Source: a virus
Strand: one strand, 5' to 3'
DNA: 64,000 nucleotides
IMG/VR virus record: IMGVR_UViG_3300032307_000731
Location: 51,164 to 115,163 of that record
Part shown: one piece after another, positions 10,273 through 64,000 of the stretch
Position numbering within the stretch: position 1 is the stretch's first letter
How the letters are laid out: each line of letters starts with the position of its first letter
Notes under the pieces: model-generated
What the model was told of the DNA's origin: nothing
Databases searched by the model: none
Seen by the model: the letters and a program-made list of their open reading frames with translations, nothing else
Translations under genes and position numbers: made by a program

Positions 10273-13200
10273 ATGGCAACAGCACAAGCAAATCAAAAAG
10301 TTTTCGTTTCACCAGGAGTTTATACTTCAGAAACTGACTTATCATTCGTAGCACAAAGTGTGGGTGTTACAACCCTAGGTTTAGTTGGTGAAACTTTAAG
10401 AGGTCCAGCGTTCGAACCGGTATTCATTACAAACTACGACGAATTCCAAGCCTTTTTCGGAGGAACAGAACCGACAAAATTCGTAAACACACAAATCCCT
10501 AAATATGAGGCTGCTTATATCGCAAAATCTTACTTACAACAATCAAATCAATTGTTTGTTACAAGAATCTTAGGTTTATCGGGATATGATGCGGGTCCAT
10601 CTTGGAGTATTAGAGTTACTGCAAATGTTGACCCAACAACAATAATCCAAAGTCCAACAGGTGTTACATCTTGGAATAGAAGTTTTACAGGAGCCACTAG
10701 TGGTGGTACCGTTGATTTCGTTTCAGGTTCGTTCCCATTAGCGATTCAAGCAAATTTAGATACTCAATATAGATTATCTGATGGTAGTACATCTACACTT
10801 GATGATGATTTTACCGCAAACATTTACAATGCGGTTGGGAATAATACTTTAACTGCGACAACAGCTTTCATTTATGGAGCAATTCCTGAGACAGATTATT
10901 ATGATATCACTGATAACTACACAACAGTTATAAATGAATATGGTTCTGATACTAATAACTTAGCAACTAATGATTTATCTGCATCTGAAAATGACCCATG
11001 GTTTTATGCAAACTTTAACAATTATGTTGGTAACTCTTATTCAGGTTATTCATTTGATTATAACATAAGTGCTTTAGAAGTAACAGGAGTAGGAAATTCA
11101 CAAACTTTTTCGGGTACAATTTCAGGTAATTATTATACATTTATTGGTACTGCTTACACTGAATTTAATAATATGGTTGTTGCAACACTTCGTTCAAGAG
11201 GTATTTCATTATATACTAATAGTTCATCAAGTGATAATCACGGACAAATCTATGAAGTAAATAATGAAAACAATGTTACAATTTTAAATACTGACCAATA
11301 TGCTGATATTGATAAAAATCCATTTGCGTCGTTTGGTTTATCAGGTGTTACTAAAGATGGTGATACTTTCACATTTGAAACTAACTTATCAGCAACTTCA
11401 TCTAAGTTTATTACAAAAGTATTAGGTGTTGATAATTTTGGAAAATCAAGAAATGAAGTTCCTTTATTTGTTGAAGAAATTTATCCAAACTCATTAGCTT
11501 ACGCTTACAATCAAGGATATATTAAAGGTATTAATCCTGAATTAATTGCATTACCTGAGGCTAGAAGTCAACAATCAAATTCAATTGCTTATAGTGTTGA
11601 AAGATATCAATCACCTAGTACACCTTATTTAGTATCAGAATTAAGAGGTAATAAAGTTTATAAATTATTCAAATTTGTTTCAATCTCTGATGGTGACGCA
11701 GCGAACACTGAGGTTAAAGTGTCGATAGCTAACTTATCATTCAATAACATGACATTTGATGTATTAGTAAGAAATTTCTTTGATACGGATTCAAACCCAG
11801 TTGTTATTGAGAAATTTACTAATTGTAACTTGGACCCTAACTCTAACAACTTTGTCGCTAAGAAAATCGGTTCAACAAATGGGGAGTACGCATTATTATC
11901 GAAATATGTGATGATTGAAATGGCGGACGAAGCACCAATTGACGCGATACCTTGTGGTTTTGAAGGATATATTCAAAGAGAATATGATTCGGTTACTAAC
12001 CCGTCTCCATACCCTGTATTTAAAACGAAATATTTCTTCCCGGGTGAGACAATTGCTAATCCACCATTTGGAAACGCTAGTGGAAGTTCAAATTTAGTTG
12101 AATCTCCTGGTGATATTGTTAGAAGAACTTATTTAGGTTTCTCAACACAATATGGTATTGACGAATCATTCTTATCATATAAAGGAAGACAAAATCCTGC
12201 ATCTTGGGTTAACTCTATAACACCTGTTGAAGGTGCTGCTTGGAACTATGTAAGTAAAGGTTTCCATATGGACTCCGGAGCAACAGTTGTAACAATTTCA
12301 AATAGTTATGACACGAGTGGTCAAACTGCTTTTGAATGTGGTGTTGCTGACTTTAGAACAGACCCTGAAACTCAAGAGAATCCATATTACTTTATTTTCT
12401 CAAGAAAGTATACTTTATGTTTTGCTGGAGGGTTTGATGGATGGGACATTTATAGAGAATATCGTACAAATGAAGATAGATTCCAATTAGGTCAATCAGG
12501 ATTTTTAGCAGGAGCATCGGTATCAACAAGATATCCAAATGCAACGGGTGAAGGTTTATTCAAACGTATTGTAGTTGAAAATAATACTCAAGATTTTGCA
12601 AACACTGACTATTACGCTTACTTACTTGGTATATTAACATTTGCAAATCCTGAGGCGACTAATATTAATGTATTAGCAACAGCAAGTATTGATTATGTTA
12701 ATAACTCAAACTTAGTTGAGGAAACAATTGATATGGTTCAATTCCAAAGAGCGGATTCTGTTTATATTACTACAACTCCTGATTATAGAATGTATACACC
12801 GGATTCAACAAATCCACAAGACGTTATCTATTCTCAAGAGGCGGTTGATAACTTAGATAATACAGGAATTGACTCTAACTATACTGCGACTTACTATCCT
12901 TGGATTTTAACAAGAGACACGGTTAACAATACACAAATTTATTTACCTGCAACAGGTGAAGTTTGTAGAAACTTAGCATTAACAGATAACATTGCTTTCC
13001 CATGGTTCGCATCAGCGGGTTACACAAGAGGTCTTGTAAATTCAGTTAAAGCGAGAGTTAAATTAACTCAAGAAGATAGAGATACACTTTACCAAGGTAG
13101 AATTAACCCTATCGCAACTTTCTCTGATGTAGGTACGGTTATTTGGGGTAATAAAACATTACAAATTGCTGACACAGCACTTAATAGATTGAACGTAAGA

Positions 13201-13494
13201 AGATTATTACTTCAAGCTCGTAAGTTAATATCAGCAGTGGCGGTAAGATTATTGTTTGAACAAAACGACCAAGTTGTTAGACAACAATTCTTAGATAGTG
13301 TTAACCCAATCTTAGACTCAATCAGAAGAGACCGAGGTTTATACGATTTCCGTGTAACGGTTTCATCATCTCCTGAGGATTTAGATAGAAATACATTAAC
13401 AGGTAAAATTTACTTGAAACCAACGAAAGCGTTAGAGTTCATTGATATTGAATTCTTCATTACTCCTACAGGAGCTTCGTTCGAGAATATTTAA
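10273..13494 (+). CDS. 18: Contractile tail sheath protein (gp18), 1073 aa
   Basis: The start has the sheath signature VSPGVYTSETDLSF, then a GLVGETLRGPAFEPVFITNY segment, then EAAYIAKSYLQQ. The C-terminal third has the conserved sheath core: NNTQIYLPATGEVCRN, FPWFASAGYTRG, QGRINPIATFSDVGTVIWGNKTL, LNVRRLLLQARKLI and the final strand FIDIEFFITP. T4 gp18 has 659 residues, so this protein carries about 400 extra residues between the ends (about 120-620), forming surface domains rich in Asn/Thr/Tyr. The sheath contracts to drive the tube through the host envelope. It has its own promoter-like motif and ends before a hairpin terminator. Confidence 0.95.
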   Translation: MATAQANQKVFVSPGVYTSETDLSFVAQSVGVTTLGLVGETLRGPAFEPVFITNYDEFQAFFGGTEPTKFVNTQIPKYEAAYIAKSYLQQSNQLFVTRILGLSGYDAGPSWSIRVTANVDPTTIIQSPTGVTSWNRSFTGATSGGTVDFVSGSFPLAIQANLDTQYRLSDGSTSTLDDDFTANIYNAVGNNTLTATTAFIYGAIPETDYYDITDNYTTVINEYGSDTNNLATNDLSASENDPWFYANFNNYVGNSYSGYSFDYNISALEVTGVGNSQTFSGTISGNYYTFIGTAYTEFNNMVVATLRSRGISLYTNSSSSDNHGQIYEVNNENNVTILNTDQYADIDKNPFASFGLSGVTKDGDTFTFETNLSATSSKFITKVLGVDNFGKSRNEVPLFVEEIYPNSLAYAYNQGYIKGINPELIALPEARSQQSNSIAYSVERYQSPSTPYLVSELRGNKVYKLFKFVSISDGDAANTEVKVSIANLSFNNMTFDVLVRNFFDTDSNPVVIEKFTNCNLDPNSNNFVAKKIGSTNGEYALLSKYVMIEMADEAPIDAIPCGFEGYIQREYDSVTNPSPYPVFKTKYFFPGETIANPPFGNASGSSNLVESPGDIVRRTYLGFSTQYGIDESFLSYKGRQNPASWVNSITPVEGAAWNYVSKGFHMDSGATVVTISNSYDTSGQTAFECGVADFRTDPETQENPYYFIFSRKYTLCFAGGFDGWDIYREYRTNEDRFQLGQSGFLAGASVSTRYPNATGEGLFKRIVVENNTQDFANTDYYAYLLGILTFANPEATNINVLATASIDYVNNSNLVEETIDMVQFQRADSVYITTTPDYRMYTPDSTNPQDVIYSQEAVDNLDNTGIDSNYTATYYPWILTRDTVNNTQIYLPATGEVCRNLALTDNIAFPWFASAGYTRGLVNSVKARVKLTQEDRDTLYQGRINPIATFSDVGTVIWGNKTLQIADTALNRLNVRRLLLQARKLISAVAVRLLFEQNDQVVRQQFLDSVNPILDSIRRDRGLYDFRVTVSSSPEDLDRNTLTGKIYLKPTKALEFIDIEFFITPTGASFENI

Positions 13495-14545: not shown

Positions 14546-15034
14546 ATGGCTGATTTATTGATGAAAATGCCGATTCCTTACGAACCGAAAAGACAGAATC
14601 GATTCATACTAAGGTTTCCATCAAGCTTAGGAATTAACGAATGGTTTGTAGAAAGTGCTGCGAGACCATCGATTAAAATTGCTTCAACTGAGATTCAATT
14701 TTTAAATACCTCAACTTATGTTGCGGGAAGATTTAATTGGGATGAAATTTCTGTTAAATTTAGAGACCCAATTGGACCTTCTGCGTCACAAGCTCTTATG
14801 GAGTGGGTTCGTTTACACGCTGAATCTGTTACAGGTCGTATGGGTTATGCAGCAGGTTATAAAAAAGATATTGACCTTGAGTTGTTAGACCCAACAGGAG
14901 TTGTTGTTGAGAAATGGATTTTATATGGTACATTCTTAACAAGTGTGAATTTTGGTTCATTAGGATACAGCACTGATGGTCTTGTAGATATTACAGCGTC
15001 ATTAAGAATGGATAGATGTGTTTTAGTTTACTAA
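14546..15034 (+). CDS. 19: Tail tube protein (gp19), 162 aa
   Basis: The length (T4 gp19 is 163 aa) and sequence fit gp19-type tube proteins. These include NRFILRFPSSLGINEWFVESAARPS at the N-terminus, the FNWDEISVKFRDPIGPSASQALMEW block, the Gly/Tyr stretch VTGRMGYAAGYKKDI, and the closing strands LDPTGVVVEKWILYGTFLTSVNFGSLGYSTDGLVDITASLR. It forms the inner tube that is pushed through the envelope. It sits alone between a promoter-like motif and a strong terminator, so it may be transcribed as a single gene, as suits an abundant protein. Confidence 0.95.
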   Translation: MADLLMKMPIPYEPKRQNRFILRFPSSLGINEWFVESAARPSIKIASTEIQFLNTSTYVAGRFNWDEISVKFRDPIGPSASQALMEWVRLHAESVTGRMGYAAGYKKDIDLELLDPTGVVVEKWILYGTFLTSVNFGSLGYSTDGLVDITASLRMDRCVLVY

Positions 15035-17834: not shown

Positions 17835-17850
17835 TATTTATAAAATAAAA
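17835..17850 (+). promoter_or_regulatory. Putative phage promoter motif
   Basis: TATTTATAAAATAAAA begins 23 nt before the ATG at 17858. Confidence 0.55.
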
Positions 17851-17857
17851 ATCATAG

Positions 17858-26200: not shown

Positions 26201-29200
26201 CAAAATATTAGAACAAGTGACCCATATCCGTTTGTTCAATCCGCTTATTTGTTTTTGAATTCATTACCATTGGCATCATTAAGAGAACGATATAAAACAT
26301 TGTCAAATGACATTACAACTGACTTAGATTATATATCGTCATGTTTTAATAAGTTTGGTGCAATTCACAAATTACCATATGCTTGGATTTTAAAATATGG
26401 TTCTGTTTGGCATCGTTATAAAAAATATAAGGAGTCAAATACAGATATTTTAGATAGTGCTTGGAAGAATTTTGATTATAGAACCAATTATAGTCCTATT
26501 TTAAGTTCAATTACTCAAACATATGACTTTAAAATAAATGACACACCAACAAGTATTACATTACAACAAGAGGATTCAAATAGTGTTAAAATGCAAATCG
26601 GGTTTTATCCTAAAGTTGTAAATGACTTTAATGTTTTTTATAAAGGTTTTGAGTTATACGATGAATATACTAATAGTGAAATTCAAAGTAGTGTTAATAA
26701 TGGGATGAAAATTTATAATTTTGAAAACTCAAATATTACTGCGAATCGAAGTAATAGAACGTTAAATTTATTTACATATTCTGTATTGTTAGAAAATAAA
26801 GATTTTGGTACTGAAGTAGATTGTGACCCTACTAATAATACTAAAGGTGTTGAATATTTTGTTGTACCTTCTTTTGGTACTTTTTATAACCAAACTCAAA
26901 TTGCTTGTGTTGAAAATTTAACAACAACTAATAATGCTGTAGTTGATTTTACCTTTAATCCAAACATATATAATGGTTCAGTTAGAACTTTATGGTCTGC
27001 ACCAAATTATGGTTATTTTGATAATAGTCAGATTAAATACCCTCAGCCCGACTCATATTTAAATTTTATTAATAATGGAGAGGAACAATCCCCTATGTCG
27101 TTATTAAATGAGGATAAGTATAGTAAAATTGAAGAAATGTTCTCAGTATTTGAGAAGAAAATTTTAGACTCATTCGAACAAGAGTTTTTAAATTTCTGTA
27201 AGCCAATTACTGACATTTCAACAATAAAAGAAACAACTTCTTTTTATACTTCAACAGTTGATGATAATAATAATTTTAAAAATTTCCAATCAGTATTTAG
27301 AGGATTGATGTCCGTTCCTGCAAAACCGGCGGGTGTAAATGAAGACGAATATTTTAATAATACAATTACTAATCAATACAATACATTCCAAGGTGGTATT
27401 AAAGATTTTATGAATTATGATGTTTTATTTAGATATGGTAATCCATCTGATTATAGAAGAAGACTTTTTAACTCTTATTTATCTCATAATAACACTCAAA
27501 AAGTTGTTGACCCTGTTAAATTTAGACCTTACGTTCAAAATACTCTTCCAACAAATGGAGGAACGTTAACGGTTTCTCAATCAAAAGGATTAAATCCTAA
27601 CGCGTGGCTAGCACTTGAAACTGAAGTTGGATTTTCAACAATAAGAAATGTTGAGTATAGTAGTACCGGTTCATATATAACGGATTTCTTTGTAAATAAT
27701 AATATTGAATTTACAACAGATAATGTTGTTTTATTGGCACCAATAATTAAGATGTACGCGACTCAAAAATTGAAAAACCCAACAATTACGGTTGGTCAAT
27801 TCCAAAATCAGATTAATCAGTACTTAAACAATGAAAGTGTATTACAAGACAATTTCTTAAATTTAGTTTTAGATGGTGTTCGTAGACAACTACCTAATCA
27901 ACAACAATTACCGGAAAGAGCTATTAGAAGTGCGATTGATGGAGAACAAAGTAAAGTTGAGAATTACGAAGTGTTCAAATCTCTTAATGATAAATGGATT
28001 GCAGGTGGTGACTATAAAACAAAAACATTATTTGAGGATATGTTATTTTTAGATAGGGCATCAAGAAATATTGGTGATACTATCATATTAAATATCTTTG
28101 ATATACAAGGAATGTTTGGGGTTGGTGGTAAAGATGGTGATTATTCTTTAAACCAAGCAATGAGTGTTTACACCTTTATTAGTGGACTATTGATTAACAA
28201 TAATTTCACAGTAATGAATTTGCCGGCATATATTAATTTTTATAATGTTCAAGATGTTGATGGAACGGTTATTCCAAATAAATCAGAAGGTTCGTTAGGG
28301 TTTGCTAATAGTATGTGGGGAACATTCTTGGATGTTGACTATAGAAAATCAAGTCCAAAAATGGTTTGTTTTTATGTGGGTAAACCATCTCAGTATTTGG
28401 ATTTACCAAAAGGTAATTTTAGATTTAGGGATGATGGTTTTGAAATGAGAAGAGCGTCTGAAAATCCATTAATTGAAAATCAACAGGGTAAAAAAGATTG
28501 GGCTTTATCTAACAAATGTGTTGGTTTTAATGTTGATATTGGAACTCGTAATCAAAGTATATTTTATTCATTTAGTGTTTCCCAAGATAATGGGACTGCC
28601 ACATCAGAATCGATAAATGCTCAAATTAATATGGTTGACCAAGCATCAGGAAAAAATGTTACAACCCAAAACGCAAGTTTATATAATCTATACAAACAGA
28701 GAAGTTATAAATGTTCTGTTGTTTGTTTAGGAAATGCGTTATTACAACCAACCATGTATTTTAATTTAAGACACGTCCCAATGTTTAATGGACCATATAT
28801 GATACAACAAGTTGAACATAGTATTCAACCGGGTCAATTCCAAACATCATTTCAAGGTATTAGACAAGGAGTGTATGATTTACCAGCAATAGATAATTTC
28901 ATTCAAAGTATTAATCAAAACTTATTAACTAAATTAGAATCGATTCTTAAGATTAAGAAAGACGTTATTAATGTGTTATCAGCATCAACAGATTCTAGTA
29001 AGAGTAATAATATTCAACAAAGTTCTAATACGACTAAAGCGGCTTCAAATACTTGTAGTAGTAAGGTTCTTCCGGTATATCTTAATGCCGGATATAATGT
29101 GGTTGATGCAACGAAAACTAGTCCTACTGAGGCAGAATTTGCAGCGGCACTTAAGAGATTGATACCAAATCTACCGGTACTTCAAACTATTATTTATTGT

Positions 29201-30895: not shown

Positions 30896-30905
30896 CATAA
30901 CGATA

Positions 30906-30920
30906 TATTTATAATAAAAA
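30906..30920 (+). promoter_or_regulatory. Putative phage promoter motif
   Basis: TATTTATAATAAAAA begins 22 nt before the ATG at 30928, just after the stop of the giant hub-like gene. Confidence 0.55.
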
Positions 30921-30927
30921 CAATTTT

Positions 30928-31152
30928 ATGAACATAAAATCAGCATTAGATAATTATCTTGGGAAATCTACAAGAATTTCTCAAACAGATAATGGAGACG
31001 GAACACAACAGGTTTGTGATTTAGATACCGGAGATTGTTATACAATCAGAGAAAGAGATGGTCTTATTGAACGAGCAGGACACCAAACAACTATTAATAG
31101 AAAAGTTAGAGTTGAAACAGCTGGTGGAATTAAACAATTATTAAACGGATAA
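30928..31152 (+). CDS. Hypothetical small protein, 74 aa
   Basis: I do not recognise this protein. It has a short helix (SALDNYLG), an acidic beta-type stretch with two Cys in CDLDTGDCYTI, and a basic C-terminus (NRKVRVETAGGIKQLL). It has its own promoter-like motif and is followed six bases later by the acidic coiled-coil gene, so the two are probably co-expressed late in infection. The start is supported by the closely preceding A-rich leader. A minor virion role is likely from its position but not shown. Confidence 0.7.
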   Translation: MNIKSALDNYLGKSTRISQTDNGDGTQQVCDLDTGDCYTIRERDGLIERAGHQTTINRKVRVETAGGIKQLLNG

Positions 31153-41370: not shown

Positions 41371-43209
41371 ATGGCAAATCGTAATATATCATATACTACA
41401 AGAGATTATCAAGGAATAAGAACTGAATTATTAAACTATGTAAGAACTTATTACCCTGAATTAATACAGGACTTCAATGATGCTTCGGTATTCTCGGTGT
41501 TCTTAGATTTGAACGCGGCGGTTGCGGATAATTTACATTATCATATTGATAGAAGTATTCAAGAAACGGTTCTACAATACGCTCAACAAAGGTCTTCAAT
41601 TTATAATATTGCAAGAACCTATGGATTAAAATTACCGGGTCAAAGACCATCTGTTTCTTTGGTTGATTTTTCAATTACGGTTCCGGCTTTTGGGGATAAA
41701 GAAGATGAAAGATACTTAGGTACATTAACAAGAGGGTCTCAAGTTGTTGGTGCTGGTATTGTTTTTGAAAACATATATGATATTGATTTTACATCACCAT
41801 ATAACGCTCAAGGGTTTCCAAATAGATTAAAAATACCAAATTTTAATGCTAATAACGTTTTAATTAATTATACCATTACTAAACGAGAATTGGTAGTTAA
41901 TGGTATTACTAAAGTTTTTAAAAGAGTTATCACACCTAATGATGTGAAACCATTCTTTGAATTATTTTTACCTGAAAAAAATGTATTAGGTATTACAAGT
42001 GTATTACTTAAGAGTGGGACTGAATATACTAATATTCCTTCTACTGCGGAATTTTTAGGGGTTGAAAATAAATGGTATGAAGTTGATTCGTTGGCGGAAG
42101 ATAGAGTTTTTATTGAAGACCCAACTAAAGTGTCGGACCAACCAGGTATTAAAGTTGGTAGATATATTCAAACACAAAATAGATTTATAAGTGAATATAC
42201 TTCTGAAGGATTTAAAAAGATGACTTTTGGTGGTGGAACAAACACTGCTCAAGATGCGTTAGACCAATTTACAACAGTTGGGGCAACAATTGATTTACAA
42301 AGATATTCAAACAACTTTTCATTAGGGTCTGCTTTAACGCCTAACTCAACATTATTTATTCAATATCGAGTTGGTGGTGGATTAGCAACAAACTTAGGTA
42401 CAAACGTGATTAATCAAATTGGTACGGTTAATTTCTTTGTGAACGGACCATCTGAATCAACTAATTCATCTGTAGTTAATTCACTAAGATGTAACAACGT
42501 TACTGCTGCAATTGGTGGTGCGGGAGTTCCTTCATTAGAAGAAATTAGAAATTATGTTTCATTTAATTTCTCGGCACAAAAAAGAGCGGTAACCGTACAA
42601 GATTATGAATCAATCATTAGAAATATGCCATCAGAGTTTGGAGCACCTGCAAAAGTGTCCATAACAGAGAATAATAATAAGATATTGATTCAGTTATTAT
42701 CTTATGATACTTCAGGTAAATTAACCAGTATTGTGTCTGATACATTAAGACAAAATGTTGCAAATTACCTTTCTAACTATAGAATGATGAATGATTATAT
42801 TTCAATCTTAACCGCTGATGTTATTGATTTAAGTATTGATGTTCAGATTGTATTAGATTCTGCACAAAATTCAGGACAAGTTATTGCTGATGTGGTTGAT
42901 AGAATTTCTACTTATCTTAATCCTCAAACAAGAGAGTTGGGACAAAATGTTTATTTATCTGAAATAAGAAGTATTGTTCAAAATCAAAACGGGGTTTTAA
43001 CTGTTGCAGGGATAAATGTGTATAATAATGTTGGAGGACAATATTCTTCTTCTGAAACATCCATGGAATACTCTAATTCTGAAACAAAAGAAATTGCTCC
43101 GGTTGATGACACAATTTTTGCTCAACCATCTCAAGTGTATCAAATTAGATACCCTAATAAAGATATTAGAGTGTCGGTTAAAAATTTCCAATCAGTTACC
43201 TTTTCATAA
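41371..43209 (+). CDS. 6: Baseplate wedge protein gp6, 612 aa
   Basis: The start ISYTTRDYQGIRTELLNYVR, then DFNDASVFSVFLDLNAAVAD and YHIDRSIQETVLQYAQQRSS, is the gp6/J-type wedge core. The block AARTYG-like 'IARTYGLKLPGQRPS' follows. A later segment (residues about 375-470: VPSLEEIRNYVSFNFSAQKR, AVTVQDYESIIRNMPSEFG) is the conserved baseplate_J-like region. It forms the dimeric ring of the wedge. Length is close to T4 gp6 (660 aa). It lies between gp25 and a 95-base gap carrying promoter-like motifs. Homology is clear even though C-terminal residues 490-612 are diverged. Confidence 0.93.
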   Translation: MANRNISYTTRDYQGIRTELLNYVRTYYPELIQDFNDASVFSVFLDLNAAVADNLHYHIDRSIQETVLQYAQQRSSIYNIARTYGLKLPGQRPSVSLVDFSITVPAFGDKEDERYLGTLTRGSQVVGAGIVFENIYDIDFTSPYNAQGFPNRLKIPNFNANNVLINYTITKRELVVNGITKVFKRVITPNDVKPFFELFLPEKNVLGITSVLLKSGTEYTNIPSTAEFLGVENKWYEVDSLAEDRVFIEDPTKVSDQPGIKVGRYIQTQNRFISEYTSEGFKKMTFGGGTNTAQDALDQFTTVGATIDLQRYSNNFSLGSALTPNSTLFIQYRVGGGLATNLGTNVINQIGTVNFFVNGPSESTNSSVVNSLRCNNVTAAIGGAGVPSLEEIRNYVSFNFSAQKRAVTVQDYESIIRNMPSEFGAPAKVSITENNNKILIQLLSYDTSGKLTSIVSDTLRQNVANYLSNYRMMNDYISILTADVIDLSIDVQIVLDSAQNSGQVIADVVDRISTYLNPQTRELGQNVYLSEIRSIVQNQNGVLTVAGINVYNNVGGQYSSSETSMEYSNSETKEIAPVDDTIFAQPSQVYQIRYPNKDIRVSVKNFQSVTFS

Positions 43210-52297: not shown

Positions 52298-53206
52298 ATG
52301 GCAATTGGAAGCTATGGAACAATAAGACCTTCAGATGTTTCACCAACAGATGTTGAAATCATCATGAATTATACACCGAGTAGAGATGTTACGGACGCAT
52401 TTGTCTTAACAAAATTGGATGCTCAAACAATTTTACGACCTTATTTTGAAAATTCTGAAACCGGAGGAAACGCAGGTGTTGAGGTTTTGGGGGGGTTATA
52501 TAATTTAACATTACCTGCTAATCAGTTTAACGCATTAGGGTTTTATACTTTATATTTGAGACCCGCCCAAATCAGAACAACAATTACTGATTGTGGGGTT
52601 TTAAGTGCTCTTCCAAATGTTAAAGGTCTTGTTATTGATTTAGCTAATGTACCAACAGAATATCAAAACAAATTTGTACCACAGGGATTAATTGGGTTTA
52701 GAATTGAATATCTAAATCCGGATGGTTCTAAAATACCTAATTTTTTCAGAGTAATTACTTCAAGTTTTTATTGTGAACCTGTTGTAACAAATGAAGTTAA
52801 CACACAACAAAAGGCGATTAGATATAGATATGTTGATGGTTCATCAAATTTGATATTTTTAACATTATCACCATCATCATCTCCAACTAACAAACCAAAT
52901 GCGACCCCATTTATTGGACAACCAAGCCAAGATATTATTATAACTAATACCTTCTTTAATCCGGTTACGATTGAAATTGAAATGGTTGAATATGACATTT
53001 CATCTCTTGCGATTGCTCTTTATGGTAATCAAACCAAATCTATTGATGATGGAATTTATACAATTTACGATTCACAAAATAACATCTATAGACAATACAA
53101 CTTATACGAGGTTAGAGACCAATTTAATGCGTTGTTATACGAGGTTAGACAAGGTCGAGGTAATAATATTGATTTTAGTAAAAACTTTACAAATATAACA
53201 ACTTAA
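52298..53206 (+). CDS. Virion structural protein, unknown, 302 aa
   Basis: I do not recognise this beta-rich protein. The N-terminal 60 residues include SDVSPTDVEIIMNYTPSRDV then FVLTKLDAQTILRPYFENSE, and the C-terminal 60 residues include YDSQNNIYRQYNLYEVRDQF. There is no Cys motif that would point to a zinc site. It is preceded by a promoter-like motif and coupled (TAATG) to the gp7-like wedge gene, consistent with a wedge-associated role. T4 gp8 has a similar position next to gp7, but no recognisable gp8 sequence was seen. Confidence 0.65.
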   Translation: MAIGSYGTIRPSDVSPTDVEIIMNYTPSRDVTDAFVLTKLDAQTILRPYFENSETGGNAGVEVLGGLYNLTLPANQFNALGFYTLYLRPAQIRTTITDCGVLSALPNVKGLVIDLANVPTEYQNKFVPQGLIGFRIEYLNPDGSKIPNFFRVITSSFYCEPVVTNEVNTQQKAIRYRYVDGSSNLIFLTLSPSSSPTNKPNATPFIGQPSQDIIITNTFFNPVTIEIEMVEYDISSLAIALYGNQTKSIDDGIYTIYDSQNNIYRQYNLYEVRDQFNALLYEVRQGRGNNIDFSKNFTNITT

Positions 53207-56193
53207 TGGCAGTAAATACGACAACAACAAAATATTTTTATCCGCCAAGACCTGGTAGTGGGGCTGCGACTTTTTCCGACAACATTGTAGGTTTACAAAC
53301 TGTTGAAGGGGGAGGTTTAACGCAAGGTAATTTTGAGTTTACAACTTCAGTTACTGAAAAAGTTAATAGAAATTTTAACGTTGGTGCGTTTTCAGAACCT
53401 TTAAGTTTACAATCGTTAAACATTGAAGATGTTAATGAAAGTAGAAGAATCATGGCAACTCAGTTTAGGGTTTATCCTAATTATGATGTTTCACAAGTTC
53501 TTAACTTTTCGATGTATGGTTCTTTACGTAAAAGATTTCAAGTATCTGCTACAAAAATTATTAATTATTTTCCAGCATCATTAGATATTCAATTTTCAAA
53601 CTTAGAGTTTGTTACAGGTGCGACGGCAATTAATGTTAGTTATGACCCTATTGAGGACGAAACTTATTTTCAAGTTAATGTTGATAGAATTAATAATCCA
53701 TTCGATATTGATTATTCTTTAAGTGCTGCAACCAATTTAAATTTAAGGGAAATTACAACTTCACCATATAGAAATTTATATAACACTTATTTAGATTATT
53801 GTGTTAGTATAAATGATGATATATTCAAAATAAATTCATTTCAACCATCGGATACGTTAGGTAGTGGTTATATTACTTTTTATGTGTCAGGTGCTCCTTT
53901 TGGTAAATCAGCAACTACGGTTTTTGAAGAATACCAAATTAGACCGAACGATTTAATTTGTGACAAAGTATTTTCTGAAAGTTTTGATGAAGTTGAAAAA
54001 TTCTTATTAAATAGATTAATAAGACCTGAATATACTGCAGTATTCCAAGTCCCTGCTCAAACTGAAAATGGAGAATTTTTTACGGATTACCAACAAGTTA
54101 CTTGGCCTAAAGATGGTCCTTGGAATTTAGATATTAGGTCATTACAATTTGATGGTTATTTAGCTCAATTGGATGCAATTGCAGAAAATTTAGATTCATT
54201 TAAAACAAATTTAATTTCGAGATTTTTAGTAACGGACTCATTAAAAGAGTTTGATACTATGGGTCAAAAAGTTGAGAAGATATTTCAAATTTATGGTAGA
54301 AGTTTTGACCAAATAAAACAATTCATAGATGCCTTGGCTTATATGAATTCGGTTAATTACAATCCATCTAACGATATACCTTCACAATTACTTGTTAATC
54401 TCGCTCAAACATTAGGATGGTCATCAAATTTTTCACCAATTACTGATGAAGACTTTTTAGAATCGGTATTTGGGAATACTTCAACTCCAACTTATCCTGG
54501 TTATGCGAGAGCGTTAACACCTACTGAGATTAATTACGCATATTATCGTAATTTAATTATTAACGCCTCTTATTTATTTAAATCAAAAGGTACAAGAAGG
54601 TCAGTTGAATTTTTAATGAGATTAATTGGTGCTCCGGATTCATTAATTGAATATAATGAACATATCTATTTAGCCGACCAAAAGATTAATTTAGACCAAT
54701 TCTATACACAATGGGCGACAATATCAGGAGGAACTTATGTTGATAATACTCCGGCCTATTTACCTGGTCAAACATATAAAATTAGAGGTAACGTTTATTC
54801 CGCTTATACATCAATTGCAACATATGAAGATGTATCGATAAGATTGGATGAATATCCTATGGATAGTTTAGGATTTCCTAAAGCTCCTGTTAATACGGAA
54901 AGTTATTTTTTCCAAGTTGGGTCGGGATGGTATGAATCAACTCCACAACATAGAAGTCCTGATGAAGTAATTATTACCGGAGATGTTTACACCGGTCAAA
55001 ATTATAATATCCAAACAAGTCTAACTCCGTTTACTTATGGACAACCATATTTAGATAGATTTAGACAATTCCCTTATATGAATGAAGGGTTTAAATTGAG
55101 AAAAGTCGTTGATAATAAAAAGTCTTGGTTAGAAGAAGATGATAAGATTAGATTGTCAACGGAGGGTGATTATAATGCTTACTATTATGTTGATAATGAA
55201 AAGTTAGTTTTAAATGTTAAAAATGTTGATTTATTTTTAAATCCTTCCCAAGGTCTTGTTTATGATGTTTGGAGAGAATCAGTTAACTATGATTATCCAA
55301 TTCCTGAATCAGGGTTAACAATTGGTTATCCGGTTCCGGGTGGAGTGGATTGGACTTACATAAATCCCCAACCAAAAAAGAAAACATTCTTTGAATTCTC
55401 ACAAACATTTTGGGAGAACATGATTAATGTTAGAAATCGACAATATATTAGTGATGGTAAAACAGGAGGTTATCCGACATTACAATCAATATGGTGGAAA
55501 TATATTGAATCTGAAGCGACAGTTGGTTTACCAAATAGCAAATATACTTATCAAAAACTTATTGATTATGTAAATGGTATTGGTCCTTATTGGATGAAGT
55601 TGGTTGAACAAATGTTTCCCGCAACAACAATTTGGAATACCGGTGTTAAATTAGAAAACTCAGTTTTACATAAACAAAAATTTGTTTATAGAAGACAAAG
55701 AGGATGTCAATTCGTTCCGGTTCCTGTTAATCCTTGTTTTATAATTGATAATATCTTTGATTTTAATTGTGCAACCGAAACAACGGTATTTAACGTATTT
55801 CCATGGTTAAATGGTGACCCAAATGTTGGGAATTTTAATAGTATTTTGGCAAACCGAATTGATAATATGTTAACCCAAAATGGATTAACGTTAAATGATT
55901 GTGTTCAAGATTCAGTTCAAACTGAATGGTATGTAGATTTAAGAATTGGTGGGGAATTATTGATTAAAGAACCATTCTATGTTGGATATGGGTATACCGA
56001 TGTCCCAACACTACAAATGTGGAGGGTTGCATTACAAAATAATCTATCATTATTATATGATTATGGATTTACTTACGATATAGAAGGAAATACTTTAACA
56101 ATACAAAGTTTAACTTGTACGGAAAGAAATATTGATGAATTGTTAACTTTAAATGTAGGAATACAAATAAATATAAATTGTAGTAGTAACTAA
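53206..56193 (+). CDS. Baseplate wedge protein, gp7 / P2 gpI-like, 995 aa
   Basis: Residues about 337-475 carry a tail protein I-like module: LKEFDTMGQKVEKIFQIYGR, then LLVNLAQTLGW, then ALTPTEINYAYYRNLI, SYLFKSKGTRRSVEFLMRLI. The order of 'LA..LGW' and 'KGT..S.EFL.R..GAP' is that of P2 gpI and the matching part of T4 gp7. Length is close to T4 gp7 (1032 aa). The C-terminal 60 residues have TLQMWRVALQNNLSLLYDYG and a final Cys. It links wedges and tail fibres at the baseplate. Start and stop are both in TAATG overlaps with neighbours. Confidence 0.72.
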   Translation: MAVNTTTTKYFYPPRPGSGAATFSDNIVGLQTVEGGGLTQGNFEFTTSVTEKVNRNFNVGAFSEPLSLQSLNIEDVNESRRIMATQFRVYPNYDVSQVLNFSMYGSLRKRFQVSATKIINYFPASLDIQFSNLEFVTGATAINVSYDPIEDETYFQVNVDRINNPFDIDYSLSAATNLNLREITTSPYRNLYNTYLDYCVSINDDIFKINSFQPSDTLGSGYITFYVSGAPFGKSATTVFEEYQIRPNDLICDKVFSESFDEVEKFLLNRLIRPEYTAVFQVPAQTENGEFFTDYQQVTWPKDGPWNLDIRSLQFDGYLAQLDAIAENLDSFKTNLISRFLVTDSLKEFDTMGQKVEKIFQIYGRSFDQIKQFIDALAYMNSVNYNPSNDIPSQLLVNLAQTLGWSSNFSPITDEDFLESVFGNTSTPTYPGYARALTPTEINYAYYRNLIINASYLFKSKGTRRSVEFLMRLIGAPDSLIEYNEHIYLADQKINLDQFYTQWATISGGTYVDNTPAYLPGQTYKIRGNVYSAYTSIATYEDVSIRLDEYPMDSLGFPKAPVNTESYFFQVGSGWYESTPQHRSPDEVIITGDVYTGQNYNIQTSLTPFTYGQPYLDRFRQFPYMNEGFKLRKVVDNKKSWLEEDDKIRLSTEGDYNAYYYVDNEKLVLNVKNVDLFLNPSQGLVYDVWRESVNYDYPIPESGLTIGYPVPGGVDWTYINPQPKKKTFFEFSQTFWENMINVRNRQYISDGKTGGYPTLQSIWWKYIESEATVGLPNSKYTYQKLIDYVNGIGPYWMKLVEQMFPATTIWNTGVKLENSVLHKQKFVYRRQRGCQFVPVPVNPCFIIDNIFDFNCATETTVFNVFPWLNGDPNVGNFNSILANRIDNMLTQNGLTLNDCVQDSVQTEWYVDLRIGGELLIKEPFYVGYGYTDVPTLQMWRVALQNNLSLLYDYGFTYDIEGNTLTIQSLTCTERNIDELLTLNVGIQININCSSN

Positions 56194-58328
56194 TGGCGTT
56201 TAATTATATCATAAATGTAACGGGGGATTGTCAAAATAATTCGAGTGGGGTAATTGACTTATTAGTCTACGACGGCTCATCACCATATACTATAGAATGG
56301 ATTTCTCCGGTATTGACGACAAATACTCAAGTAACCGGAACGGTGACGAAAACAGGATTACTTAGTAATACTTATGCTATTAAAGTTACGGATTCTACAT
56401 TACCTGATAATCAAATTGAATATATCAATATTCCGGTATCAAGTGGGGTCTGTTGTAGTATTTTAGGTGTTCAAGATACAACTTGTTCTCAAAATAATGG
56501 TTCTGTTACAGGAACCTCAACAACTCAATACTCTTCAACAAATTATTATTTATATCACGGGGATGGTGTTTATAGTCAATCTGCGACAACAAATCAAAAT
56601 AGTGTTGTCTTTGGAAGTTTAACGGCTGGAACTTATTATATGACAGTTCAAGATTTAGGAGGATGTACGGGTCGTAGTCAAAATTTTATTGTTGAAGAAT
56701 CGGTACCTTTAAATTATGGTTTATATATGGTTCCGAACTCATCTTGTGGAGGACAGCCATTAGGTAAATTAACTGTAACTGGTTTGACGGGACAACCACC
56801 TTTCACTTATTTATGGGACAATGGTGCGACAGGGTCTACAATTACAGGTTTAACTTCGGGTTCTTATTTTGTTACGGTAACAGATGGATATGGTTGTGAA
56901 TTAAATCAAGGTTCAACAATTGTTGATGTTAACCCAATAGGACTTGGTTTTTTTACTGCAACTCCCCCAACCTGTTTTTCTGCTAATGGGGTGTTGACCC
57001 TTAATATTACAGGAGGAACTGCACCTTATTATTATTCAGCTTCAACGGGTCAAGTTGAAATTTCTTATGCTAATTCTTTTTCAATTTCGGGATTGTCTTC
57101 GGGTAGTTATGGTTTTTTAGTGACTGACGCGGGATTTTGTCAATTAAGTGCGGAATCATCATTGGTTTCTCCAAATGGAATCGCATCCGTATCAGTACAA
57201 ACATTTAATTCAACTTGTTCAAGTACAAATGGACAAATAACAATATCAGTAATTGGTGGAGTTACACCATATACTTATACCTTAATTTACCCAACAGGAG
57301 ATGTTGTTGATACAAGTGGAAGTCAAACGGTTCAACTATTTGACAATTTATCTGCAGGTACTTATTCAGTTGGTGTTAGTGATGATTCAGGTTGTTCATA
57401 TTTGGATGAGGTTTACATCATGACTGATAATAAGTATACAATATCAACAACGGTTACAGGTACTTCTTGTAATCAAGTAAATGGTTTAATTAATGTTGTA
57501 GTTAATACAGGTGCAACCTTACCACTTAGTTATTCTATTGATAACGGGTTATATGATATTTTAAATACAAATTTAACAGCGGTAACCTTTAATAATATTT
57601 CCGCTGGTACACATACGGTTACCGTAACAGATGCCTCAGGATGTGCTCAATCTACTAACGTATTAATTACATCAAGTGAACGATTAGATTACTCATTATA
57701 TAGTACATCTTGTGGTACGGGTAATAGTGGTAAAATAACTGCATTTATAAACTCAGGTGTACCACCATTTTCTTTCTATTGGTCTAATAACGTTCCAAAT
57801 AATCCACAACAAATTCAAGTATCGGGTTTAACAGGTGGAACTTATAGTTTAACTATTGTAGATAGTGGGGGATGTTCCTTAGTTAGAAACGCTTTGATTA
57901 GTTGTAATGCTAACTTAACATCATATCAAACTTACGTTATGGGTGAGGAAGTTTTTAATATTGAATCTCCAACTAAGTTTGGTTTATTACAAATGTTAAA
58001 TGAAGGTTTTTATGATTTAACATTGGATAATGAAGGGTGTGATTTAGTAAGTGCGACATTTACTGCAAAAGTATCGGTAACTCCTCTTAATTTAACTACA
58101 AGTGACACATTCTTTACAACAACTTCATTAAATGTTTATCCAACGGATAATCAATATTATGATACAATTAGAGAATTATTATTAACAATTCCAGGTGTTG
58201 GAAATGTTATTATAAACGCTCTAACAAATCAAATAACAATTGAGACAACAAGAGGTAATGATACTTTAAATGGTCAAGAGATTATTATTGATTTGATTAT
58301 TGAGTATGATATAATGTGTTTGAATTAA
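56193..58328 (+). CDS. Tail fibre protein made of SprB-type repeats, 711 aa
   Basis: Seven beta-sandwich repeats of about 65-80 residues cover residues 1-570. Most follow the pattern C-x-x-x-NG-x-ITxxxxGGTxPYxYxxxxG, GLxxGxYxVTVTDxxGC. Examples: FTYLWDNGATGSTITGLTSG, GGVTPYTYTLIYPTG, TGGTYSLTIVDSGGC. This is the SprB-repeat pattern of Bacteroidota gliding adhesins. Each repeat starts and ends with Cys, suggesting a disulphide or stacked Cys pair. Residues about 575-711 are a different domain. It likely extends from the baseplate and contacts the host surface. Start is coupled by TAATG; the small gene downstream begins three bases after its stop. Confidence 0.85.
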   Translation: MAFNYIINVTGDCQNNSSGVIDLLVYDGSSPYTIEWISPVLTTNTQVTGTVTKTGLLSNTYAIKVTDSTLPDNQIEYINIPVSSGVCCSILGVQDTTCSQNNGSVTGTSTTQYSSTNYYLYHGDGVYSQSATTNQNSVVFGSLTAGTYYMTVQDLGGCTGRSQNFIVEESVPLNYGLYMVPNSSCGGQPLGKLTVTGLTGQPPFTYLWDNGATGSTITGLTSGSYFVTVTDGYGCELNQGSTIVDVNPIGLGFFTATPPTCFSANGVLTLNITGGTAPYYYSASTGQVEISYANSFSISGLSSGSYGFLVTDAGFCQLSAESSLVSPNGIASVSVQTFNSTCSSTNGQITISVIGGVTPYTYTLIYPTGDVVDTSGSQTVQLFDNLSAGTYSVGVSDDSGCSYLDEVYIMTDNKYTISTTVTGTSCNQVNGLINVVVNTGATLPLSYSIDNGLYDILNTNLTAVTFNNISAGTHTVTVTDASGCAQSTNVLITSSERLDYSLYSTSCGTGNSGKITAFINSGVPPFSFYWSNNVPNNPQQIQVSGLTGGTYSLTIVDSGGCSLVRNALISCNANLTSYQTYVMGEEVFNIESPTKFGLLQMLNEGFYDLTLDNEGCDLVSATFTAKVSVTPLNLTTSDTFFTTTSLNVYPTDNQYYDTIRELLLTIPGVGNVIINALTNQITIETTRGNDTLNGQEIIIDLIIEYDIMCLN

Positions 58329-58331: not shown

Positions 58332-58652
58332 ATGACACAATTAGAGATACGAAGTATATCGGGGGGTACTTTACCAATAAATATATATGCTTGTGATGTA
58401 TATCAAAATCAATGTGTTCTATTTGGAACTATTAATACTACTGTTCCACCGGTTTTAGTCTTTAATCTGCCACCTCAATTTAATAATATTCCTGCTATTG
58501 GTATTTTATTGAGGGATGCTGTTGGTTGTGAAAGATTTGAAGTTGGGATTTGTGGGGATTCGGGTGTTGGTAAAATATTCCAAAACATCGATGATGATTA
58601 TGTATTCCAATTTATGGACTTTATTATTTACCAATTTGAGGGGCCAAATTAA
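58332..58652 (+). CDS. Hypothetical small virion-associated protein, 106 aa
   Basis: I do not recognise a family. It is beta-rich: LEIRSISGGTLPINIYACDV, then CVLFGTINTTVPPVLVFNLP, with four Cys (about 21, 28, 68 and 74). The last 30 residues are acidic/aromatic (DDDYVFQFMDFIIYQFEGPN). It is short and placed between the SprB-repeat fibre and the Gly-Thr-Ser fibre, so an adaptor or chaperone function for a fibre is conceivable. It is preceded by a three-base gap and followed by a promoter-like motif. Confidence 0.7.
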   Translation: MTQLEIRSISGGTLPINIYACDVYQNQCVLFGTINTTVPPVLVFNLPPQFNNIPAIGILLRDAVGCERFEVGICGDSGVGKIFQNIDDDYVFQFMDFIIYQFEGPN

Positions 58653-58702: not shown

Positions 58703-61700
58703 ATGCCGATATATCAAAGACTGACCGACCGACAATTTTCACCTAGTGCGGTTACACTTAACGATTTAATACATATTGTAATTACTGGTGATACTTCACA
58801 AAGTCCTCAGGGTTCCTCGTTTAAAGTGACCTTGGGTGATGTTGCGCATGTTATGTCGGGAGGAACCGGAACGTCAGGTACAAGTGGAACTTCGGGGATT
58901 AATGGTACCTCAGGTACGAGTGGAACTTCGGGAGTTAATGGTACCTCAGGTACAAATGGTACGTCAGGTACTTCAGGTACAAGTGGTGTTGATGGAACTA
59001 ATGGTACATCAGGAACGAGTGGTATAAATGGAACTTCAGGTACTGATGGAACATCAGGAACTAGTGGAACATCAGGTACTACAGGTACGAGTGGTATTGA
59101 CGGGACTAATGGAACATCGGGAACATCGGGAGTAAATGGTACATCGGGTACTAGCGGTACGACAGGAACTAGTGGTACATCAGGAACAACAGGAACAAGT
59201 GGTACAAGTGGTATTAATGGGACTAATGGTACGAGCGGAACTTCAGGTGTTAATGGTACCTCAGGAACAAGTGGTACAACAGGTACTTCAGGTACTTCAG
59301 GTACAACAGGTACCTCAGGAACAAGTGGAACTTCGGGTGTAAATGGAACTTCAGGTACTAGTGGTGTAAATGGAACTTCAGGTACAACAGGTACAAGTGG
59401 GACTTCAGGTACAACAGGTACATCGGGAACTAGTGGTATTGACGGAACTAATGGGACATCAGGTACAAGTGGTGTAAATGGAACTTCAGGAACAACAGGT
59501 ACTTCAGGAACATCAGGAACAACAGGTACATCGGGAACTAGCGGTACAACAGGAACAAGTGGAACAAGTGGTGTTAACGGAACATCAGGTACTTCGGGAA
59601 CTACAGGTACTTCAGGTACTTCAGGTACAACAGGAACTAGCGGTACAACAGGTACTTCAGGAACAAGTGGTATTGATGGAACAAGTGGTACAACGGGAAC
59701 TTCAGGAACAACAGGGACTAGTGGTACAAGTGGAACAACGGGTACATCAGGGACTTCAGGAATAGATGGTACATCGGGAACATCAGGAACAACAGGTACT
59801 TCAGGAACATCAGGAACAACAGGTACTTCAGGTACTAGTGGAATCGATGGGACTTCAGGTACAAGTGGGACAACAGGTACCTCAGGAACAAGTGGAACAT
59901 CAGGAACAACAGGTACTTCAGGAACATCAGGAACTACAGGTACTTCAGGTACTAGTGGAATTGATGGGACTTCAGGTACATCAGGAACTGATGGGACAAG
60001 TGGAACTTCAGGAACAAGTGGTACAACAGGTACTTCAGGAACAACAGGTACTTCAGGAACATCAGGAACTTCGGGAATTGATGGGACATCAGGAACAAGT
60101 GGTACAACAGGTACAAGTGGTACAAGTGGTACGACGGGTACAAGTGGAACAAGTGGGACAAGTGGGATAGATGGTACTTCAGGAACATCAGGAACATCAG
60201 GAACAACAGGTACGAGTGGAACATCAGGAACAACAGGTACGAGTGGAACAACAGGTACTTCAGGAACTAGCGGTATTGACGGAACGTCAGGTACGTCAGG
60301 AACTGATGGTACGAGTGGAACAACAGGAACTAGTGGTACATCAGGAACTACAGGTACCTCAGGAACTAGTGGTACATCAGGTATTGACGGAACATCAGGG
60401 ACTAGTGGTACAGATGGAACTTCAGGGACAAGCGGTACAACGGGAACTAGCGGTACATCAGGAACAACAGGTACAAGTGGAACTAGCGGTACAACAGGTA
60501 CTAGTGGAACATCAGGTATTGATGGGACATCAGGTACAACCGGTACATCAGGTACATCAGGTACATCAGGTACTACAGGTACTAGTGGTACATCAGGTAT
60601 TGATGGAACATCAGGGACAAGTGGTACAGATGGAACTTCAGGGACAAGTGGTACAACAGGAACATCAGGTACAACAGGCACAAGTGGAACTTCAGGAACA
60701 GATGGTACTTCGGGAACAAGTGGAACAACAGGTACCTCGGGAACAAGTGGTACAGATGGTACTTCAGGTACTAGCGGTACGACAGGAACAAGTGGAACTT
60801 CAGGAATTGATGGAACTTCAGGAACTAGCGGAACCGATGGTACTTCAGGAACTAGCGGTACAGATGGGACTTCAGGGACTAGCGGTACTACAGGTACATC
60901 AGGAACAAGTGGAACTACAGGTACTTCAGGTACAAGTGGTATTGACGGAACTTCAGGAACAAGTGGTACAGATGGAACTTCAGGAACTTCGGGTACAACA
61001 GGAACTTCGGGAACTAGCGGTACTTCAGGTATTGATGGAACTTCAGGAACTAGCGGAACCGATGGTACTTCAGGAACTAGCGGTACAACAGGAACATCAG
61101 GAACTAGTGGAACTACGGGTACTTCAGGTACAAGTGGGACTAGTGGTACTTCAGGAACGGATGGTACATCAGGAACTACAGGTACTTCAGGTACAAGTGG
61201 GACTAGTGGTACAACAGGTACATCAGGAACTACAGGAACTTCGGGAACAACAGGTACAAGTGGAACTAGCGGTACTACAGGTACATCAGGTACATCAGGG
61301 ACAACAGGAACAAGCGGAACTTCAGGAACAAGTGGTGATGATGGTATATCGGGAGGACAAAATTTATTCTTCAACCAATCAGTGGTACAAGGAGTAACTC
61401 CATATAAAGAATTAGGTGAATTTACAGATGGGCTTCCACAAAGTACTGTAACTGTAAATCTAACCGCGAATCAACAAAATGTTTTAATTAATGGTGGATT
61501 TATTACAGACCCGGGAAAACCTGGAGTTTTTGTAATCCCAAATGGTTTATGGCACGCATATTGTTATTTCACCAAAAATGCTGAAAATGATAACCTAAGT
61601 GTTTATTACATTGTTTCGAAATATACTACAGGAGGGACAAAAACTACGTTATTTACATCAAGTGCAGTTCAAATTGGATGGGATACTAATAATACAACGC

Positions 61701-64000
61701 CTGTTGAGATAAAAATAAATGCCTTACCAACAACTGAAATATTAGATATTACAGACAGAATTATTGTCGATTTATATGTTAACAATGGTGATAACCAAAG
61801 TAGAACAGCTACCTTTTACTCAGAAGGTACTTTAAATTATTCATATTTAGTAACAACATTAGCAACTCCATCAGGAACAAGTGGTACTTCAGGGACGAGT
61901 GGTACTTCAGGAACAACTGGAACATCAGGTACTTCAGGAACAAGCGGTACTAGTGGTACAACGGGTACTTCAGGAACATCGGGTACGAGTGGTACAACAG
62001 GTACCTCAGGTACAAGTGGTGTAAATGGGACTTCAGGAACTAGCGGTACAACAGGGACTTCAGGGACTTCAGGTACAACAGGTACTTCAGGAACAAGTGG
62101 AACAACCGGTACAAGTGGTACTTCAGGAACAACAGGTACAAGTGGAACATCAGGAACAACCGGTACAAGTGGAACATCAGGAACGACAGGTACAAGTGGT
62201 ACTTCAGGAACGACAGGTACAAGTGGAACAACAGGTACGAGTGGGACTTCGGGTGTTAATGGTACAAGTGGAACAAGTGGTACTACAGGTACAAGTGGTA
62301 CTTCAGGAAGTTCAGGTACTTCTCCAACAGGATTAGTTGCATCTAATTACGTTGCTAAAGGTGTTAAGGGAGGTACTATTCAAACTATAACAAATGGAAG
62401 TGACCAAGTTGTAACATTTGTTGATGAGTTTGACCCTAATGGTTGGATATCATCTAATAAATTTCAACCAACAATTGAAGGTTATTACAATATTCAAGTT
62501 GCAGTATGGTGGTACCCAGCATCAACAACATCAGGACAAAATAATGTTCAGCTTAGAAAAAATGGTAGTACACAAGTTGCAATTCAACAATTTCCACTTA
62601 ATACTACTGAGGGATATGGACAAGAAATTGATATTGTAATGTATTTTAACGGTTCTACTGATTATATTGAAGTTACTGCTTATACATCAAATCCAACATC
62701 TCAAGATATACATGGTGAGAGTTCGGGTACTTGGATTACGGGGTCATTAATTGTTGGTGGTGGAACAAGTGGTACATCAGGTACTAGTGGAACGTCAGGA
62801 ACAAGTGGAACTACGGGTACTTCAGGTACAAGCGGAACTTCAGGTGTTAATGGTACGTCAGGAACAAGCGGTACAACAGGAACATCAGGTACTAGTGGAA
62901 CAACGGGTACAAGTGGTACTTCAGGTACAAGTGGTGTTAATGGAACTTCAGGAACTAGTGGGACTTCGGGTACTACAGGAACAAGTGGTACGACAGGTAC
63001 TTCAGGAACAAGTGGAACTTCGGGTATTAATGGTACGTCAGGTACATCGGGAACAACAGGTACAAGCGGAACTTCAGGAGTTAATGGTACGTCAGGTACA
63101 TCGGGAACAACAGGTACGAGCGGAACTTCAGGTGTTAATGGGACCTCAGGTACATCAGGTACTTCGGGAACAACAGGTACGAGCGGAACTTCAGGTGTTA
63201 ATGGGACCTCAGGTACTTCAGGAACAACAGGTACCTCAGGGACTAGTGGTACGACAGGGACATCAGGGACTAGTGGTACTACAGGTACAAGTGGTACTTC
63301 GGGTATTAACGGAACTTCAGGTACAAGTGGAACTTCAGGAACTACAGGAACAAGTGGAACTTCGGGTGTAAATGGAACGAGTGGTACTTCAGGAACATCA
63401 GGAACAACAGGTACGAGTGGAACTAGTGGAACAACAGGTACATCAGGAACAAGTGGAACTTCGGGTGTTAATGGTACTTCAGGAACTAGCGGAACGACAG
63501 GAACCTCAGGTACAACAGGAACCTCAGGTACTTCAGGAACTACAGGTACAAGTGGAACTTCAGGTACGACAGGGACTTCGGGAACTACAGGTACTAGTGG
63601 AACATCGGGAGTGAATGGTACATCAGGAACTAGCGGTACTTCGGGTATTAACGGAACTTCAGGTACAAGTGGAACAACAGGAACATCAGGTACAACAGGA
63701 ACATCAGGAACATCAGGAACAACAGGTACGAGTGGAACTTCAGGTACTACCGGAACAAGTGGAACATCTGGAGTAAATGGAACGTCAGGAACAACAGGGA
63801 CTTCGGGAACTACAGGTACTAGTGGAACATCGGGAGTGAATGGTACATCAGGAACTAGCGGAACAACAGGGACTTCGGGAACTACAGGAACAAGTGGGAC
63901 TTCGGGTACTACAGGTACAAGTGGAACTTCAGGTGTTAATGGTACATCAGGGACTAGCGGTACGACAGGTACTTCGGGAACTACAGGTACAAGTGGAACT
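58703..64000 (+). CDS. Collagen-like Gly-Thr-Ser repeat tail fibre, partial (runs off window end), at least 1766 codons
   Basis: The frame is open from the ATG to the window end without a stop. The N-terminal 50 residues ([20 protein letters not shown] then [20 protein letters not shown]) look like an attachment domain. Then come three stretches of strict Gly-X-Y with X-Y mostly Thr-Ser, interrupted by INGs, VNGs and IDGs (58862-61353, 61874-62322 and 62762 onward). They are separated by a beta domain (61357-61873, with [13 protein letters not shown]) and a C1q/TNF-like jelly roll (62323-62761: [29 protein letters not shown]). There is no Pro. It resembles trimeric collagen-like phage fibres. 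The shadow ORFs on both strands are by-products of the repeat. Confidence 0.88.
58862..61353 (+). repeat. (Gly-Thr-Ser)n coding repeat, block 1
   Basis: About 830 residues of Gly at every third position. Common units are [13 protein letters not shown] with INGs, VNGs, IDGs or DDGs. At DNA level the 9-base unit varies in its third bases and Ser codons (tca, tcg, agt, agc). Confidence 0.9.
61874..62322 (+). repeat. (Gly-Thr-Ser)n coding repeat, block 2
   Basis: About 150 residues of the same unit, with one GSSG near its end leading into the C1q-like domain. Confidence 0.88.
62762..64000 (+). repeat. (Gly-Thr-Ser)n coding repeat, block 3 (continues past window)
   Basis: Same unit, with frequent VNG and ING interruptions. 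It continues beyond the window, so its length is unknown. Confidence 0.88.

What the first reader, a model, noticed from the sequence alone, without database searches (positions are those of the whole stretch)
56193..58328. SprB-type repeats in a tail protein: host adhesin mimicry
Seven repeats with Cys at both ends match the SprB repeat of Bacteroidota gliding adhesins. The phage may bind partner adhesins or surface filaments through like-to-like contacts, or the repeats may have been taken from a host adhesin gene. This also fixes the host group.
Basis: partly seen in the sequence, partly recalled or inferred. Interest (0 to 1): 0.7.

Follow-up and report, generated by a model that had tools for sequence, protein, structure and literature searches.

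The report
Seven-domain SprB-like phage tail adhesin
A tailed phage, very probably of Bacteroidota bacteria, carries a tail-region protein made of seven immunoglobulin-like beads of the type its hosts use in surface adhesins; the seven-bead layout is the same in every one of the about 100 distinct relatives examined, so it is an old, standard phage part rather than a recent theft of a host gene.

Summary
ORF 56193-58328 (+, 711 aa) matches Pfam SprB (E 8e-22). It has seven mutually homologous Ig-like domains; six, not seven, carry the canonical Cys pair. A short linker and a C-terminal alpha/beta domain (invariant MLNEGF-D core) follow, and that domain is homologous to the C-terminus of the upstream 995-aa protein. 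Gene position (T4-type baseplate genes upstream, collagen-like fibre downstream) supports a tail role. Host group Bacteroidota is supported independently by near-absence of Shine-Dalgarno sites (1 of 79 genes; 20 of 32 in a T4 control).

Among 148 full relatives in viral contigs (99 distinct sequences) every one has exactly seven domains directly after a 995-type gene, and each domain position forms its own clade. The array is therefore an old, fixed phage architecture, not a recent capture of a gliding adhesin. SprB repeats occur in many Bacteroidota secreted proteins, so they do not point to gliding. Like-to-like binding is untested. Alleles are swapped among phages about one domain at a time, and the N-terminal domain is the most variable. 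Best reading: a baseplate-attached, host-contacting Ig-domain arm, the SprB counterpart of crAssphage BACON-repeat tail proteins. New variant of a known kind.

The parts
56193..58328 (+). 711-aa SprB-repeat tail protein
56193..56453 (+). D1, N-terminal Ig-like domain; most variable domain, no D-x-x-G-C end
56454..56702 (+). D2, Ig-like domain, Cys98/Cys158
56703..56939 (+). D3, SprB-type Ig-like domain, Cys185/Cys235; most conserved of the seven
56940..57179 (+). D4, SprB-type Ig-like domain, Cys261/Cys316; best Pfam SprB stretch
57180..57431 (+). D5, SprB-type Ig-like domain, Cys342/Cys401
57432..57677 (+). D6, Ig-like domain, Cys426/Cys484
57678..57911 (+). D7, SprB-type Ig-like domain, Cys507/Cys561
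57912..57977 (+). low-confidence linker (residues 574-595)
   Evidence: pLDDT under 50
57978..58328 (+). C-terminal alpha/beta domain with QMLNEGFYDL motif; homologous to C-terminus of the 995-aa protein
53206..56193 (+). 995-aa conserved protein, probably baseplate-associated by position; directly upstream in 148 of 148 relatives; C-terminal domain at 55720-56190 shares profile and strand order with that of the SprB protein
41371..43209 (+). baseplate wedge subunit (phrog_219; Baseplate_J)
58332..58652 (+). 106-aa companion gene; starts near SISGGTLPI like a SprB half-repeat, no family match
58703..64000 (+). collagen-like Gly-Thr-Ser fibre protein, runs off the record end
   Evidence: (Collagen E 9e-117)
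10273..13494 (+). tail sheath protein (contractile tail)
14546..15034 (+). tail tube protein

Best explanation
It is an Ig-domain arm on the baseplate or tail-fibre base of a contractile-tailed Bacteroidota phage. The C-terminal alpha/beta domain docks the protein on the baseplate, next to the homologous C-terminal domain of the 995-aa protein. The seven SprB-type beads form a semi-rigid rod of fixed length, with the variable N-terminal domain outermost, which makes a weak, reversible first contact with host surface material (glycans or surface proteins) before the collagen-like fibre and baseplate commit. Domain-by-domain allele exchange between related phages retunes the contact surface without changing the length. 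Shown: seven homologous Ig-like domains, fixed number, fixed gene position, homologous C-terminal domains, position-locked mosaicism, Bacteroidota signatures. Inferred: virion location, which end faces outward, the ligand, reversible adhesion.
For: Contractile-tail genes (sheath, tube, baseplate hub, gp6-type wedge) in the same window and a collagen-like fibre downstream; T4 has its wedge, pin and short-fibre genes in the corresponding place. 148 of 148 relatives have seven domains plus the C-terminal domain right after a 995-type gene. AlphaFold model: chain of beta-sandwiches plus alpha/beta C-terminal domain, mean pLDDT 82.6; best PDB match is the grappling-hook adhesin GhpA, E 1.3e-19, also found by sequence profile, E 4e-5. 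C-terminal domain homologous to the 995-aa C-terminus: hhalign probability 90%, E 1.6e-6, cross-hits down to 1.2e-5, same H-E-E-H-E-E-E order in two independent models. Faster change than the 995-aa neighbour (dN 0.068 v 0.017 at dS 0.51 v 0.38 in the pair with L006), greatest in D1, D3 and D4, with dS raised as well; mosaic tract pattern (runs 195 v at least 243 in 2000 shuffles) with breaks near domain borders.
Against: No proteomics or structure places it in the virion. Profile libraries give only a weak 'tail protein' hit (phrog_3995, E 3e-4) and the 995-aa protein is unidentified. dN is well below dS in every domain, so the changes could be neutral exchange, not receptor-driven. The pTM of the model is low (0.34), so bead-to-bead geometry and orientation are unknown. 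A purely structural shaft would also keep a fixed number of domains.
Confidence: 0.6

Rival explanations
1. Purely structural connector: the seven Ig beads act as a shaft or strut linking baseplate and collagen-like fibre, with no own host contact.
For: Invariant domain number, purifying selection in all domains, C-terminal domain shared with its neighbour, location between probable wedge and fibre genes.
Against: Faster change than the neighbour and domain-scale allele exchange concentrated in D1 and D3-D6; no obvious N-terminal attachment domain, D1 starts at about residue 3.
Confidence: 0.22
2. Host adhesin mimicry: the repeats bind host SprB-type adhesins or filaments by like-to-like contact.
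For: Full-length repeat homology with Bacteroidota surface proteins. Phage receptors of Flavobacterium have been proposed to be part of the gliding machinery (PMC7345892), and F. johnsoniae gldD and gldG mutants are more resistant to phages (PMC5682007).
Against: Homology does not imply homophilic binding; no evidence here of self-association; repeats are widespread outside gliding adhesins; host identity below phylum unknown.
Confidence: 0.08
3. Environmental adhesion: Ig domains hold the phage on mucus, algal or particle glycans where hosts live, as proposed for Ig-like domains of other phages.
For: Gut phages of Bacteroidota with Ig-like domains adhere to epithelium (PMC13370021); profile hits to phage decoration and neck-whisker Ig domains.
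Against: The gene sits with baseplate and fibre genes, not with head genes; no glycan-binding test.
Confidence: 0.1

Closest known systems
BACON-domain tandem repeats of crAssphage (cluster 1)
   Same: Tandem Ig-like domains otherwise known from Bacteroidota surface proteins, in a tail-region protein, fixed number (eight), each position its own clade (PMC6949934)
   Different: Different domain family (SprB, not BACON), contractile T4-type phage, seven domains, shared C-terminal docking-like domain, allele swapping at fixed positions, most variable end is N-terminal rather than C-terminal
UniProt A0A6J5LD72 'SprB repeat' [uncultured Caudovirales phage]
   Same: 714 aa, 34% identity, full-length structural match (Foldseek E 7.6e-64): a member of this family already in the databases
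   Different: Database name only; no study found
SprB-repeat surface proteins of Bacteroidota (Runella, Spirosoma, Emticicia, Aureispira)
   Same: Same repeat of about 77 aa; a phage-derived profile hits dozens of repeats at about 50-65 bits each in Runella
   Different: Much longer arrays, repeats tending to cluster within one protein, T9SS sorting context; the phage protein has no sorting-domain match above cut-off
Grappling hook protein GhpA of Aureispira (PDB 9flp and others)
   Same: Best structural match of the Ig-bead chain (E 1.3e-19)
   Different: Cellular protein of 5898 aa; only the bead type is shared

Membership tests
Pfam SprB repeat (PF13573) | score above gathering cut-off of 28 bits | tested here: met
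   77 bits whole protein; three stretches above 28 bits singly
SprB gliding adhesin / T9SS cargo | C-terminal T9SS sorting domain | tested here: not met
   Por_Secre_tail only 15.6 bits (cut-off 27) and inside D7, not at the C-terminus
SprB gliding adhesin / T9SS cargo | encoded with sprC/D/F or gld genes | tested here: not met
   lies among phage tail genes; 995-type phage gene directly upstream in 148 relatives
SprB gliding adhesin / T9SS cargo | moves on the cell surface and drives gliding | not testable with these tools
   needs cells
Ig-like tandem-repeat tail proteins of Bacteroidota phages (crAss-BACON kind) | tandem Ig-like domains in a protein encoded beside tail genes | tested here: met
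Ig-like tandem-repeat tail proteins of Bacteroidota phages (crAss-BACON kind) | position-specific domain clades and fixed number | tested here: met
   precedent
Ig-like tandem-repeat tail proteins of Bacteroidota phages (crAss-BACON kind) | BACON domain match | tested here: not met
   no BACON hit in Pfam scan: same kind, different domain family
Bacteroidota phage | lack of Shine-Dalgarno sites | tested here: met
   1 of 79 genes (2.9 expected) v 20 of 32 in T4; phylum trait in PMC6847099
Bacteroidota phage | CRISPR spacer or culture link to a host | not tested
   no spacer tool; no cultured relative of the SprB protein in the phage collection

The most novel reading that the evidence does not exclude
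A modular, position-locked receptor-contact rod: seven host-type adhesin domains whose alleles are exchanged one domain at a time among phages while length is strictly kept, and which binds host SprB-type surface filaments by domain pairing.
Probability: 0.07. Interest if true: 0.75.

Novelty: new variant of a known kind. Interest (0 to 1): 0.42.

Why it matters
It gives a widespread uncultured phage family a recognisable tail adhesin candidate and a host phylum, and adds a second, independent case (after BACON in crAssphage) of Bacteroidota phages using tandem Ig-like domains of the kind found in their hosts' surface proteins. Fixed length with domain-wise allele exchange is a testable design for retuning adsorption.

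Tried and rejected
Relatives in bacterial genomes: two scans of genome contigs (SprB protein alignment; NrdA) confirmed nothing. Structure of the 995-aa protein: low confidence except the C-terminus and some N-terminal strands, no usable Foldseek match; no PDB, NCBIfam or convincing PHROGs match, so its identity as a wedge or gpI-like protein rests on position only. Bacteroidota promoter motif TAnnTTTG: not enriched upstream of genes (6 v 4.8 expected). Recent host capture: rejected on fixed count and positional clades. One origin of all phage domains: not rejected (AU p 0.94), not shown either; direction of transfer cannot be told from an unrooted tree of 85 columns.

Full report
Observation. 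The frame at 56193-58328 (+) encodes 711 aa and matches Pfam SprB at E 8.2e-22. Splitting it at the repeat borders gives seven domains of 78-87 aa; all pairs score as homologous by profile comparison, the weakest D1-D2 (E 1e-4), the strongest D3-D7 (E 5e-22), and none matches the C-terminal region. Six domains (D2-D7) have Cys at both ends; D1 has only the first canonical one. The AlphaFold model is a chain of beta-sandwiches (mean pLDDT 82.6), a low-confidence linker 574-595 and an alpha/beta domain.

Nearest folds and sequences. In the PDB the best structural matches are fragments of the Aureispira grappling hook GhpA, also found by sequence profile (E 4e-5). Among viral predictions the best is a 714-aa 'SprB repeat' protein of an uncultured Caudovirales phage, 34% identical end to end. 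In the phage records only one uncultured 642-kb phage matches; among plasmids ten records match, all Bacteroidota. A profile of the phage repeats hits dozens of repeats in a Runella T9SS-type protein at about 50-65 bits each, over the whole repeat of about 77 aa.

Setting. The window holds tail sheath, tail tube, baseplate hub and a gp6-type wedge. The SprB gene follows a 302-aa and a 995-aa gene and precedes a 106-aa gene and a collagen-like fibre gene that runs off the record end. T4 has wedge, pin and short-fibre genes in the corresponding place.

Family. Two scans of viral contigs gave 70 loci and 80 loci (443 relatives in all, the best 80 kept; some contigs recur). Of 148 proteins with the C-terminal domain, 99 distinct sequences, every one has exactly seven domains and a 995-type gene ending within 400 nt upstream. 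Identity to the window protein goes down to 35%. In a repeat tree of ten diverse phages plus six Bacteroidota records and the huge phage, each position D1-D7 is one side of a branch (SH-aLRT 68 to 98), whereas most bacterial repeats tend to cluster by protein, the Flavobacterium ones excepted. This is old, fixed architecture. Phage domains as one clade is not rejected.

C-terminal domain. Residues 574-711 and the C-terminus of the upstream protein are homologous (hhalign probability 90%, E 1.6e-6; HMM cross-hits E 0.005 to 1.2e-5) and share the order H-E-E-H-E-E-E in two separate models. I infer a common docking role; this is not shown.

Variation. Against L007 the upstream gene stays near 92% at DNA level; identity drops to 64-72% over D1, returns to 92% over D2, falls to 69-83% over D3-D4, and recovers to 85-96% over most of D5-D7. 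L006 pairs with the window in D1 but with L007 in D3-D4 (protein) and D3-D5 (informative DNA sites); L037 pairs with L015 and L020 in D6-D7 but not in D1. Informative sites are clustered beyond 2000 shuffles in three triplets. Alleles are thus exchanged in tracts near domain size, at fixed positions. dN is below dS throughout, but the protein changes faster than the 995-aa protein. D1 is the most variable domain over 30 sequences (mean pairwise identity 43%), D3 the least (57%).

Host. 1 of 79 genes has a Shine-Dalgarno-like site (2.9 expected by chance) against 20 of 32 in a stretch of T4; absence is a Bacteroidota trait (PMC6847099). G+C is 31.7%. Together with the repeats this supports a Bacteroidota host; genus unknown.

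Comparison. The direct precedent is the crAssphage BACON array: eight Ig-like domains in a tail-region protein, position-specific clades (PMC6949934). The present family is the same kind of thing with another domain family in contractile-tailed phages. It fails tested defining features of a gliding adhesin (sorting domain, gene context), so it is not a SprB. Library searches found no paper on SprB repeats in phages, but the library lacks most subscription journals.

Mechanism. Most likely a baseplate-anchored rod that makes weak first contact with host surface material. Ligand, orientation and virion location are inferred.

Noticed in passing
L075:5843-8545 (own record, outside window): A 900-aa TonB-dependent receptor (Plug E 3e-13 plus CarbopepD_reg_2) with an apparent signal peptide, encoded on the same viral record: an outer-membrane receptor gene typical of Bacteroidota on a phage contig, unless the record is chimeric.
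   Followed up: no
window 1525-3057 (-): 510-aa protein with a complete Fe/Mn superoxide dismutase at its N-terminus and about 280 further residues.
   Followed up: no
window 10273-13494: Tail sheath of 1073 aa in which only about the last quarter matches sheath families.
   Followed up: no
window 58703-64000: Collagen-like fibre of at least 1766 aa of GTS repeats interrupted by two non-repeat stretches; truncated by the record end.
   Followed up: no
window 58332-58652: 106-aa gene with SISGGTLPI near its start, like a SprB half-repeat; its C-terminal half differs between relatives.
   Followed up: partly
L049:9848-11272, L055:8119-9495, L058:10551-11942, L065:9759-11117: Divergent relatives carry a second SprB-type protein of 453-475 aa with two repeats downstream.
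   Followed up: partly
L084 (LR756502.1): A 642-kb uncultured phage has 17 SprB-type repeat hits in one fetched region and also lacks Shine-Dalgarno sites there.
   Followed up: partly
L075 and L076, record positions about 15000-31000: Block of genes on the minus strand with at least one glycosyltransferase match and several sugar-metabolism-like N-termini; two adjacent 262-aa genes at 23769-25349 begin identically.
   Followed up: no
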